A stretch of DNA of 64,000 nucleotides from a virus: positions 1 through 64,000 of IMG/VR virus record IMGVR_UViG_3300007760_001422. One strand, written 5' to 3'. The notes beneath the pieces are model-generated. The model did no database searches and was not told where the DNA came from. It was given only the letters and a program-made list of their open reading frames with translations. The number at the start of each line of letters is the position of its first letter. Position 1 is the stretch's first letter. Of the stretch, positions 1-5,230 are shown piece after piece. The position numbers were made by a program, and so were the translations under genes.

Positions 1-114
1 GCCGTCACCACAGGAGAATCCCCAGCACATAGCGGTTGATTGCATGGGGGCGCTTCTATCTCCATAAAGAAGGGGAAATGCTTTTACTAGTTTTTTATCA
101 TTTTCTTTATTCAT
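1..114 (-). CDS. Partial conserved small phage protein (C-terminus outside the window)
   Basis: Open from an ATG at 114-112 to the window edge, 38 codons visible. The start reads MNKENDKKLVKAFP and continues with a Tyr-Gly-Asp-Arg segment and a Met-Cys-Trp-Gly-Phe...Cys-Gly-Asp-Gly cluster. I recall this pattern from small proteins in marine phages, but no function is known to me. The spacing Cys-Trp-Gly-Phe-x-Cys could suit metal binding. A purine-rich ribosome site (GGGAGAGCGA) precedes the ATG. The start region is duplicated at 431-451, upstream of the neighbouring gene. The C-terminus is missing, so family assignment is uncertain. Confidence 0.6.
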   Translation of the reverse strand, partial: MNKENDKKLVKAFPLLYGDRSAPMQSTAMCWGFSCGDG

Positions 115-124
115 TCTTCGCTCT
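104..124 (-). repeat. Direct repeat copy A: RBS/start region of the gene at 1-114
   Basis: A 21-base segment containing the ribosome site, ATG and first codons (ATGAATAAAGA) of the gene at 1-114. It recurs at 431-451 with one difference (position 120 versus 447). The two copies bracket the small gene at 141-371. Confidence 0.75.
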
Positions 125-399: not shown

Positions 400-441
400 T
401 CATAAATAGGTTGAGTGGTTACTTTTTGTATCTTTATTCAT
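400..441 (-). pseudogene. Truncated duplicate of a gene start (13 codons)
   Basis: ATG at 441-439 with RBS-like AAGAGTGA gives MNKDTKSNHSTYL and then TGA. The first codons and the ribosome site copy those of the gene at 1-114, but the frame closes at once. It may be the scar of a duplication event, or a short leader peptide. Confidence 0.4.
402..409 (-). promoter_or_regulatory. Putative late promoter element (CTATTTAT)
   Basis: Reads CTATTTAT on the coding strand about 30 bases upstream of the ATG at 371. It matches the element found before several other transcription units (8871, 23946, 29597, 30748). The promoter role is inferred from position and recurrence only. Confidence 0.4.
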
Positions 442-451
442 TCTTCACTCT
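431..451 (-). repeat. Direct repeat copy B of an RBS/start region
   Basis: 20 of 21 bases match 104-124. It lies just downstream of the tRNA half-gene and upstream of the gene at 141-371. Confidence 0.75.
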
Positions 452-459
452 TTTCCTCA

Positions 460-497
460 TATGAACCGCATGCTCTATCCAACTGAGCTACGAGGGC
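460..497 (-). pseudogene. tRNA-Met(CAT)-like 5' half, broken in the anticodon loop
   Basis: On the minus strand positions 497-491 give the acceptor strand GCCCTCG. Then follow TA, D-stem GCTC, D-loop AGTTGGATA, GAGC, A26, anticodon 5' strand TGCGG, and a loop beginning TTCATA (anticodon CAT). The expected 3' strand CCGCA is absent; the sequence diverges right after the anticodon into unrelated DNA, and no T-arm follows. The break point is the classical integration or recombination point in tRNA genes. The methyltransferase reading frame runs into this element and takes its last seven codons and TAG stop from the tRNA sequence. Confidence 0.7.
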
Positions 498-1224
498 ATT
501 GTAATTCACGAATACGGGCATTCGCTACATCAACATATTCTGGATTGATCTCTATCCCAATAAAATTTCTATTTGTTTTTATTGCGGCGAGTGCCGTTGT
601 GCCGGATCCAATGCAATTATCTAATACAACATCTCCCTCATTTGTATATGTTTTAATCAGATATTCAAACAGGGCCAGTGGCTTTTGTGTCGGATGGTAT
701 ACCTTCCCCTCGCTTTCAGCAGTTTTAAAATATTGCACAGTGCGAGGATAGCGCATTCCAGTATCATTCTTCACAAGAACCGACTTTTGCTTTCCATAGA
801 CTTCGGTTGGCCGGTGAGCCTTGCCCTTGTTATATGGAGTGCTCTGCCACATTTGTGGATTATACACCGGTGGCTTTTTATAAAACACACACACGTCTTC
901 ATGAGCCCTCATCGGCATTTTTTTCGCATTCAAGTAACCGGTGGCCTTTGATTTTTCCCAAATCCAATTATATTTAAATTCTTTAATGTTCGAACTAATC
1001 AATACGCTAGTAAATGGCTGTGCGGACGTTAATACCACAGCTGCATTCTGTTTGATTACTCTCTTATACTCTTTCCACAATTCTTCAAGTGGGATGATTG
1101 TATCCCACTTGCATTGTGTGGTGCCGTATGGTAAATCACACAATATCATGTCAATTGAATCATCAGGAATCTCTCTCATCGTTTCCAGACATTCACCTGT
1201 ATATATTTTATTCAGAGACTTCAC
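475..1224 (-). CDS. Site-specific DNA methyltransferase (N6-adenine/N4-cytosine, beta class)
   Basis: 249 residues, consistent with an N6_N4_Mtase domain. The catalytic motif IV appears as DLPY (about residues 30-33, in the context ILCDLPYGTTQCKWD). The SAM-binding motif I (VVLDNCIGSGTTALAAI) is C-terminal, near residue 200, which gives the beta-class order. The family transfers a methyl group from SAM to an exocyclic amino group in a specific DNA sequence; the target here is unknown. The frame overlaps the upstream endonuclease-like gene by 17 bases, suggesting translational coupling. The last residues (CPRSSVG) are encoded by the tRNA half-gene, so the native C-terminus was probably different and the junction is secondary. 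It could act in restriction-modification, or as an orphan enzyme masking phage DNA. Confidence 0.88.
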   Translation of the reverse strand: MKSLNKIYTGECLETMREIPDDSIDMILCDLPYGTTQCKWDTIIPLEELWKEYKRVIKQNAAVVLTSAQPFTSVLISSNIKEFKYNWIWEKSKATGYLNAKKMPMRAHEDVCVFYKKPPVYNPQMWQSTPYNKGKAHRPTEVYGKQKSVLVKNDTGMRYPRTVQYFKTAESEGKVYHPTQKPLALFEYLIKTYTNEGDVVLDNCIGSGTTALAAIKTNRNFIGIEINPEYVDVANARIRELQCPRSSVG

Positions 1225-1849
1225 TACCCTTCAACCTCTCTTCAAAAACATCCATAATGCTCTGAACATATTCCTTCAACTTTTTGTGATTTAACGGCTT
1301 ATGGTTTTCTTTCTTCCAGATTGGCTTTGTACTGCTTCGCTTTCCATCGGTTAAAAAACTAACACTACCGATGTGCCCCTCGTCCATGATAAAATCATAT
1401 GACTCTTTTTTAACAGAATTTTCAATAGCCAAGACAGAACTAGAAATATTACTTTTAGTATACTTTCTGATCATCCTACAGTCATCAGAGGCTCTAATAA
1501 GATAGCATCGATCCAAATAGGCCTTGCACTCTTCAATGTGAATCAAATCTCCGTCAATATATTGATGGCGGTCAACTTGCATCTGAATGGCATTGCCATT
1601 TTCATTAGTGCATTCAATCTTTCTTTCATCTCCCTTGAGGGTTTCGAATTTGAAACCATAAAGATTGGCATAGTGACTGCCCACCGCAGCCCATGCTGTC
1701 TCTGATAGTTTTTCACCCAGAGCGCCATTCATGTATCGAATTCGGCCGCCAACGTTGGGGGCGTGCGAGATTGAATCAATCTCTTTCATTGTTTTAGTAT
1801 AAAGATTATTTACTTTTTTACAAACACTATTAAACATTTCTTTTTGCAT
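1208..1849 (-). CDS. Putative restriction endonuclease-like protein (PD-(D/E)xK-like motif)
   Basis: 213 residues, no certain family. Around residues 93-112 there is an acidic run followed by E-E-C-K (QYIDGDLIHIEECKAYLD), which fits the D...(D/E)xK metal-binding core of restriction enzymes, with predicted strands around it. An N-terminal segment with Gly-Gly-Arg-Ile-Arg, then Gly-Glu-Lys and Trp-Ala, could form the core's first helix. The gene overlaps the DNA methyltransferase and shares its transcript, which is the strongest contextual support. A good ribosome site (AGGATGAGAT) precedes the ATG at 1849. Alternatives are another nuclease or an unrelated protein that happens to lie next to the methylase. 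Confidence 0.5.
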   Translation of the reverse strand: MQKEMFNSVCKKVNNLYTKTMKEIDSISHAPNVGGRIRYMNGALGEKLSETAWAAVGSHYANLYGFKFETLKGDERKIECTNENGNAIQMQVDRHQYIDGDLIHIEECKAYLDRCYLIRASDDCRMIRKYTKSNISSSVLAIENSVKKESYDFIMDEGHIGSVSFLTDGKRSSTKPIWKKENHKPLNHKKLKEYVQSIMDVFEERLKGSEVSE

Positions 1850-4159: not shown

Positions 4160-4190
4160 GAATAAAAAGTTGAGACATCTGTAAACCCAT
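4149..4190 (-). other. Short ORF made by repeat copy 1 (MGLQMSQLFIHEC)
   Basis: A strong ribosome site (GGGAGG) and ATG inside the 33-base repeat open a 13-codon ORF. It ends just past the ATG of the membrane-protein gene (4159). It could couple translation into that gene, or be a scar of the duplication. The first seven residues match those of the ORF at 5123-5218. Confidence 0.35.
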
Positions 4191-4202
4191 GCCTCCCTGC
4201 GG
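4170..4202 (-). repeat. 33-base perfect direct repeat, copy 1
   Basis: Identical to 5198-5230. Each copy holds a GGGAGG ribosome site, an ATG and seven codons (MGLQMSQ). The pair brackets exactly one gene, the ParB-like ORF at 4209-5120. Flanking bases differ on both sides. Confidence 0.9.
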
Positions 4203-5122: not shown

Positions 5123-5218
5123 TTATTCCTCCTTATGAGCAGCATCTAAGGTTTTGAGGCCAATTGGACTTACACTAGGTACCTTATCACCTAAAATTTG
5201 AGACATCTGTAAACCCAT
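5123..5218 (-). CDS. Small 31-residue ORF upstream of the ParB-like gene
   Basis: Starts inside repeat copy 2 with ribosome site GGGAGG and reads MGLQMSQILGDKVPSV... to a TAA three bases before the ParB-like ATG. Its last codons (AAG GAG GAA) form that gene's ribosome site. This arrangement suits a translated leader or coupling peptide. No homologue recognised. Confidence 0.45.
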   Translation of the reverse strand: MGLQMSQILGDKVPSVSPIGLKTLDAAHKEE

Positions 5219-5230
5219 GCCTCCCTGCGG
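5198..5230 (-). repeat. 33-base perfect direct repeat, copy 2
   Basis: Identical to 4170-4202, 1,028 bases apart. It carries the ribosome site and start of the 31-residue ORF. Confidence 0.9.

What the first reader, a model, noticed from the sequence alone, without database searches (positions are those of the whole stretch)
460..500. tRNA half-gene cut in the anticodon loop, with its sequence captured by a methyltransferase C-terminus
Positions 497-460 reproduce a tRNA 5' half (acceptor strand, D-arm, anticodon 5' strand, CAT anticodon) and stop matching right after the anticodon. The methylase frame enters the element, so its last seven codons and stop codon are tRNA sequence. A break at the anticodon loop is typical of site-specific recombination into tRNA genes. 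Most phage att sites carry the 3' half, so a 5' half is unusual. It may mark where the restriction-like cassette joined the genome.
Basis: partly seen in the sequence, partly recalled or inferred. Interest (0 to 1): 0.75.

Follow-up and report, generated by a model that had tools for sequence, protein, structure and literature searches.

The report
Broken phage tRNA at gene-swap site
A marine bacterial virus carries the first half of one of its own former tRNA genes, cut where other viral genes repeatedly splice in, and a neighbouring DNA-methylase gene now uses the tRNA letters as its tail; it shows tRNA genes serving as gene-exchange points in phages rather than a classic virus-integration site.

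Summary
Minus-strand 497-470 is the 5' part of a tRNA (27/28 identical to tRNA-Arg(UCU) of related phages), and the methylase ends in it (CPRSSVG*). The window is part of a 131-kb virus record with no other ARAGORN tRNA (a tmRNA excepted), no 3' half and no tyrosine integrase. Related phages carry an intact tRNA-Arg(UCU) downstream of the same 5'-3' exonuclease gene, so this is a relic of a phage tRNA, not a bacterial att site.

It is not a simple half. nt 1-27 match the resident tRNA-Arg, but nt 28-38 match the anticodon arm of tRNA-Met and run into a leader (TGAGGAAAAGAGTGAAGAATGAA). The same joint recurs behind other tRNA 5' ends in other phages, followed by different ORFs, one a DUF723 endonuclease-like ORF found in two different tRNA genes. 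These joints are 95-97% identical although backbones are about 70%. In a second phage an unrelated gene, clpX, also ends in the half (CPRSSAG*). Best reading: the tRNA was broken when a short module recombined in through shared tRNA sequence, probably with homing-endonuclease help; a type II restriction-modification cassette fills the slot upstream. Mobility is inferred; the driving enzyme is not shown.

The parts
470..497 (-). resident part: nt 1-28 of a former phage tRNA-Arg(UCU) gene
   Evidence: 27/28 identical to tRNA-Arg(UCU) of relatives L089, L140 and L146, which lies downstream of the same exonuclease gene in L140/L146
460..469 (-). tRNA-Met(CAU)-like anticodon 5' arm and loop (GCGGTTCATA), first part of the incoming module; the crossover lies somewhere in the D-arm/position 26 region that all these tRNAs share
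   Evidence: nt 28-38: 9/11 to tRNA-Met of relatives against 5/11 to tRNA-Arg; same joint in L173 and G001
437..459 (-). rest of the shared leader, TGAGGAAAAGAGTGAAGAATGAA, with RBS-like GAGG and start codon
   Evidence: part of a 64-nt block (437-500) 96.9% identical to L173 and a 63-nt block 90.5% identical to G001
400..441 (-). mini-ORF MNKDTKSNHSTYL* joined to the leader; in L126 the same stretch stands before the g141 homologue
   Evidence: sequence; segment 104-442 is 88.5% identical to L126
141..371 (-). small gene MKITKRQLRKIIKKE..., next complete ORF downstream of the half
   Evidence: ORF; 78% identical protein in L126, which also has the half
475..1224 (-). type II N6/N4 DNA methyltransferase whose last seven codons (498-478) and stop (477-475) are tRNA sequence
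   Evidence: PF01555 E 1.4e-32; PADLOC MTase_II E 3e-88; homologues end at residue ~242
1208..1849 (-). putative type II restriction endonuclease overlapping the methylase gene
   Evidence: PADLOC REase_II E 1.5e-7; homologues adjacent to the methylase in L013, L019-L022, L024, L025
1858..2088 (-). small ORF; 38% identical homologue lies inside the tRNA cluster of L149/L152
2109..3071 (-). 5'-3' exonuclease gene, the anchor for synteny: in relatives tRNA-Arg(UCU) or the half follows it
   Evidence: PF02739 E 3.9e-30; 80 relatives fetched

Best explanation
The element is a chimeric relic of a phage-encoded tRNA-Arg(UCU) gene that stood downstream of the 5'-3' exonuclease gene in an ancestral marine T4-like phage. 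A short module, made of the 5' anticodon arm of a tRNA-Met, an RBS leader and an ORF, entered by recombination through the sequence that all these tRNA genes share (CGTAGCTCAGTTGG..TAGAGCA). It left the 5' part of the resident tRNA and removed the 3' part. Modules of this kind sit behind different tRNA 5' ends in related phages, and one form carries a DUF723 endonuclease-like ORF. So the most likely mechanism is spreading between phage tRNA genes, started by homing-endonuclease cuts and repaired by the phage's own recombination system. Independently, a type II restriction-modification cassette occupies the slot between exonuclease and half. It was joined so tightly to the tRNA 5' end that the methylase lost its own tail and reads seven codons into the tRNA before a stop. 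Shown: phage tRNA relic, chimerism, recurrence of the joint, capture by two unrelated genes. Inferred: mobility, the homing-endonuclease drive, the order of events.
For: (1) Relatives L140, L146, L149, L152, L154, L155 and L161 hold an intact tRNA-Arg(UCU) downstream of the exonuclease gene, same strand; window nt 1-27 match it 26/27. (2) In six loci nt 1-27 fit the resident tRNA best (Arg in window, L126, L173, L171; Met in L169; in G001 no intact copy is known) while nt 28-38 are Met-like, 9-10/11, in all but L126, whose anticodon loop is gone. (3) The joint is far more alike than the backbones: window-L173 62/64 nt against 65-73% in the long backbone blocks; L173-G001 128 nt at 96%; L171-L169 113 nt at 94.7% against 66-76%, in tRNA-Arg in one and tRNA-Met in the other. 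(4) The ORF after the L169/L171 joint has a DUF723 zinc ribbon (E 3.4e-4, exactly at the Pfam cut-off) and matches phage endonuclease PHROGs. At the other end of G001 an ORF with the C-terminus of an HNH endonuclease has its stop abutting an orphan tRNA 3' half. (5) clpX of L173 also ends in the half, ECPRSSAG*. (6) The phage has a RecA/UvsX-type recombinase. (7) T4/T6 precedent: SegB cuts in tRNA genes and drives UvsX-dependent recombination using microhomology between a tRNA 5' end and a gene 3' end (PMC13096335, PMC2988022).
Against: No endonuclease gene is seen beside the half in the window, and PF01844, PF01541 and PF05265 find nothing in the 131-kb record. The type A module (window, L173, G001) is followed by small ORFs of unknown function, not by a nuclease. 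The contigs of L168, L170, L172, L173 and L171 end about 80-125 nt past the joint and L169 about 0.5 kb past it, so no module's far end was read. Window, L126 and L173 have the half in the same neighbourhood, so part of the similarity could be common descent or ordinary homologous exchange. The tRNA-Met-like assignment rests on 11 nt.
Confidence: 0.6

Rival explanations
1. Plain decay: a one-off illegitimate deletion joined the 5' part of the phage tRNA-Arg to a downstream gene leader; nothing mobile is involved, and similar joints spread by ordinary homologous recombination between related phages.
For: tRNA clusters of this phage group are clearly in flux: G001 has a tRNA with an internal deletion just upstream of its half, and many relatives have no tRNA here. 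The window, L126 and L173 halves share the same neighbourhood. Gene starts with GAAGAATGAA are repeated in several of these phages and offer crossover points.
Against: The same Met-like arm plus leader stands behind different tRNA 5' ends in different genes, and the DUF723 module sits in tRNA-Arg in one phage and tRNA-Met in another. A one-off deletion does not predict this.
Confidence: 0.25
2. The half is an attP or att scar: a site-specific recombinase integrated a temperate element, or the restriction-modification cassette, at a tRNA gene, with the tRNA 5' half as core.
For: Pelagibacter podoviruses carry exactly such a 5' half of tRNA-Arg(UCU), ending after the anticodon loop, directly after an integrase gene.
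Against: No tyrosine integrase in the record, no second core copy in 131 kb, the intact tRNA is a phage gene at this locus in relatives, and the half also exists without the cassette (L126) or beside clpX (L173). The chimera of two tRNAs is not expected of an att core.
Confidence: 0.06
3. The tRNA half is kept as a functional RNA element, for example a stable 5' leader for downstream genes, a decoy for anticodon nucleases or a source of tRNA-half RNA.
For: The D-stem is intact in all six loci and the 64-nt block is 97% identical between phages with about 70% backbone identity.
Against: It cannot form an acceptor stem or T-arm; L126 has lost the anticodon loop and changed A9; in L173/G001 the high identity extends into the following coding sequence, which recent transfer explains as well. 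In the window part of it is coding.
Confidence: 0.07

Closest known systems
T4/T6 SegB and its tRNA region (free-standing GIY-YIG homing endonuclease between tRNA-Arg and tRNA-Ile)
   Same: Phage tRNA cluster, tRNA-Arg next to the exchange point, double-strand breaks within tRNA genes, UvsX-dependent recombination, microhomology between a tRNA 5' end and a gene 3' end that crops the gene's C-terminus (PMC13096335, PMC2988022)
   Different: No GIY-YIG gene in this record; here a tRNA is destroyed and chimeric, and unrelated genes (methylase, clpX) are joined to its 5' end
Pelagibacter podovirus attP with 5' half of tRNA-Arg(UCU) (HTVC120P, EXVC010P, MedDCM-OCT-S42-C7)
   Same: 5' half of tRNA-Arg ending around the anticodon loop
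   Different: Those lie beside an integrase and are a single tRNA sequence; the window half has no integrase and is an Arg/Met chimera at a locus where relatives keep the intact phage tRNA
tRNA gene fragments left by integrative elements or captured by CRISPR (PMC9897764)
   Same: Partial tRNA genes missed or misread by annotation
   Different: There, partial duplications made by integration, with a complete copy at the other end of the element; here a phage's own tRNA without a complete copy
Phage nuclease genes at boundaries of genetic exchange (PMC10448857, title and abstract only)
   Same: Mobile nuclease genes mark mosaic joints in phage genomes
   Different: Here the joint is inside a tRNA gene and recurs with a shared leader

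Membership tests
Phage tRNA-Arg(UCU) gene relic | sequence match to an intact phage tRNA | tested here: met
   27/28 over nt 1-28
Phage tRNA-Arg(UCU) gene relic | same genomic neighbourhood as the intact gene | tested here: met
   downstream of the exonuclease gene, same strand, in L140, L146, L149, L152, L154, L155, L161; half in L126 and L173 also downstream of exo
Functional tRNA gene | complete cloverleaf | tested here: not met
   ARAGORN none, no Rfam tRNA match up to E 10, no 3' half in 131 kb
tRNA att site of a temperate element | integrase gene | tested here: not met
   PF00589 absent from the record, while all 14 control genomes ring; serine integrases not tested
tRNA att site of a temperate element | second copy of the core at the other end of the element | tested here: not met
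   single match in 131 kb at up to 5 mismatches in 20
Homing-endonuclease element in a tRNA gene | endonuclease gene at the joint | tested here: inconclusive
   DUF723 endonuclease-like ORF at the joint in L169/L171, incomplete at contig ends; none in the window
Homing-endonuclease element in a tRNA gene | same element in more than one target with higher identity than the backbone | tested here: met
   L169 in tRNA-Met, L171 in tRNA-Arg, 94.7% over 113 nt against 66-76%
Homing-endonuclease element in a tRNA gene | cleavage of an uninterrupted tRNA gene and transfer in crosses | not testable with these tools
   needs enzyme and phage
Group I intron in a tRNA anticodon loop | catalytic intron core and matching 3' exon | tested here: not met
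   no Rfam group I intron match near the half or in L203/L209; no 3' half
Type II restriction-modification cassette | REase and MTase genes adjacent | tested here: met
   REase_II E 1.5e-7 and MTase_II E 3e-88, overlapping genes, pairing repeated in other contigs; activity not tested

The most novel reading that the evidence does not exclude
A family of small phage mobile modules uses the conserved tRNA D-arm as a landing sequence: each carries a tRNA-Met-like anticodon arm at its 5' end, hops between phage tRNA genes of different identity by endonuclease-started recombination, leaves chimeric tRNA 5' halves, and so turns tRNA genes into docking points for gene cassettes on both sides.
Probability: 0.35. 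Interest if true: 0.65.

Novelty: new variant of a known kind. Interest (0 to 1): 0.48.

Why it matters
tRNA clusters are known exchange points in T4-like phages, and SegB shows how a homing endonuclease can exploit them. If the module really moves by way of the D-arm that nearly all tRNAs share, one short homology would give access to many sites in many phages, and would help explain why tRNA genes in such phages are lost and reshuffled so quickly. It also gives a concrete case of two unrelated proteins (a DNA methylase and ClpX) whose last seven residues are tRNA sequence, and a warning that a tRNA half in a phage genome need not be an attP and so should not be used for host assignment without an integrase.

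Tried and rejected
Intact bacterial source: exact scan of 84,980 species genomes for CCCTCGTAGCTCAGTTGGATAGAGCATGCGG gave nothing. Intact phage tRNA with the same anticodon arm: two IUPAC scans of viral contigs gave nothing. Missing 3' half elsewhere in the record: none; the one T-arm-like match (G000:121926-121942) belongs to a tmRNA. Methylase next to a tRNA cluster in L014: suggestive at first, but that contig shares nothing else with the window in the stretch compared. Group I intron: no Rfam match. Reading past the module ends: the pattern scan for its ORF found only contigs that stop there, and the DUF723 relatives L187-L194 have no tRNA by ARAGORN.

Full report
WHAT IS THERE. The window is bases 1-64000 of a 131,445-base virus record with 5'-3' exonuclease, ThyX and RecA/UvsX-like genes. 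On the minus strand, 497-460 reads GCCCTCGTAGCTCAGTTGGATAGAGCATGCGGTTCATA. Its first 28 bases match a relative's tRNA-Arg(UCU) with one mismatch, and 100 shuffles of the window gave no such match. ARAGORN finds no tRNA in the record, and no orphan tRNA 3' half or second 5' half was found. The methylase ORF 475-1224 ends LQ-CPRSSVG-stop, the seven codons and the stop being tRNA sequence. Homologues at 67-74% identity stop matching at about residue 242 and have other tails. A second contig from another assembly is identical here.

WHERE THE HALF COMES FROM. Relatives were fetched through the exonuclease gene. Several carry tRNA-Leu(UAA) before exo and tRNA-Arg(UCU), tRNA-Ile(UAU) and tRNA-Met(CAU) after it, on the same strand. 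Their tRNA-Arg(UCU) begins GCCCTCGTAGCTCAGCTGGATAGAGCAT in L089, L140 and L146, and the window has this with C replaced by T at one place. The half is therefore a relic of a phage gene, and neither a bacterial source nor an att site is needed. An exact scan of bacterial and archaeal genomes found no source.

IT IS A CHIMERA. After nt 27 the relatives' tRNA-Arg reads TCGGCCTTCTAAGCCGA, but the window reads TGCGGTTCATATGAGG. Counted over nt 28-38 the window matches tRNA-Arg 5/11 and tRNA-Met 9/11; over nt 1-27 it matches tRNA-Arg 26/27 and tRNA-Met 22-24/27.

THE JOINT RECURS. A pattern made from the joint found seven stretches in the viral collection. L170, L172 and L173 (one phage in three assemblies) have GCCCCCG...GCATGCGGTTCATATGAGGAAAAGAGTGAAGAATGAA behind clpX. 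G001 (189,713 bases) has it behind a different tRNA 5' end, GCCGGGG..., near a tRNA with an internal deletion. L169 has a near variant in the tRNA-Met gene and L171 has the same variant in the tRNA-Arg gene. L126 has a half right after exo whose anticodon loop is gone. The window-L173 joint is 62/64 identical, whereas the long aligned backbone blocks are 65-73%; L173 and G001 share 128 nt at 96%; L169 and L171 share 113 nt at 94.7% against 66-76% elsewhere, at different tRNA genes. The 120 nt upstream of the six loci show no meaningful similarity to each other.

WHAT FOLLOWS THE JOINT. Different ORFs: MNKDTKSNHSTYL* and then a small gene in the window, MKVGDLVKIK... in L173/G001, MKEEKG... in L126, and in L169/L171 MREKKKKFEHIK..., a DUF723 zinc-ribbon ORF related to phage endonuclease families. 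At the start of G001 an ORF with the C-terminus of an HNH endonuclease ends with its stop against an orphan tRNA 3' half. The contigs of the type A joints other than the window's (and its twin L003) end about 80-125 nt past the joint, as expected if assemblers met the same sequence in several contexts. That last point is inference.

WHAT PRECEDES IT. The window has a putative type II restriction endonuclease overlapping the methylase; the pair recurs in other contigs, so it is a cassette. It lies between exo and the half. In L126 nothing lies there. In L173 clpX does, and clpX also runs into the half, ending ECPRSSAG*. Two of the three frames that enter this tRNA 5' end stop within it, so a gene cropped at the tRNA is quickly closed. 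This explains the capture without a special function.

MECHANISM. I propose that double-strand breaks in tRNA genes, probably by homing endonucleases, are repaired by phage recombination from donors that share only tRNA sequence. This leaves resident 5' parts joined to incoming modules. The precedent is SegB of T4/T6, which cuts in tRNA genes and drives UvsX-dependent rearrangement using microhomology between a tRNA 5' end and a gene 3' end (PMC13096335; PMC2988022). Shown here: relic, chimera, recurrence, double capture. Inferred: mobility and the enzyme. No HNH (PF01844), GIY-YIG or DUF723 gene was found in the window's record, which may be incomplete.

ALTERNATIVES. Simple decay plus ordinary recombination remains possible (0.25). 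A kept RNA function is possible but unneeded.

VERDICT. Real, explained in outline, and a new variant of a known kind: tRNA genes as phage exchange points. The single locus is modest; the recurrence of the same chimeric joint in several phages is the interesting part.

Noticed in passing
L089:10362-10554, L090:9851-10044, L119:6146-6352 (relatives of the window phage): A 193-207 nt RNA gene with a tRNA-like acceptor stem, D-arm, T-arm and anticodon stem but about 100-130 extra bases in the anticodon loop (apparently tRNA-Val(UAC) in two). The three are homologous, with compensatory changes in the helices, and no Rfam family was matched at the one copy searched. Possibly a very small intron or a new tRNA-like RNA.
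   Followed up: partly
same record beyond the window, G000:121915-122380 (-): Phage-encoded tmRNA, Rfam RF00023 at 82.8 bits, not found by ARAGORN; another at L219:5889-6225.
   Followed up: partly
window 475-1849 (-): A putative complete type II restriction-modification pair in a phage genome, REase gene overlapping MTase gene; same pair in L013, L019-L022, L024 and L025.
   Followed up: partly
L222:1201-1239, L223, L224 (Pelagibacter podoviruses): Unannotated 5' half of tRNA-Arg(UCU) ending after the anticodon loop, about 60 nt behind the integrase: likely attP with the 5' half as core, contrary to the usual 3' half.
   Followed up: partly
window 4174-4202 and 5202-5230: Exact 29-bp direct repeat (0 expected in shuffles), with related copies in relatives such as L089 and L164; it contains a possible hairpin (GAGGCAT...ATGTCTC).
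   Followed up: partly
window 104-124 and 431-451 (-): 21-bp repeat of a gene start (GAAGAATGAATAAAGA) on either side of the gene at 141-371, probably a crossover point for swapping small genes.
   Followed up: partly
G015 (L213), G013, G011, G012: Many short repeated gene starts reading MKVGDLV..., in tight arrays: fast-changing families of small genes in these marine phages.
   Followed up: no
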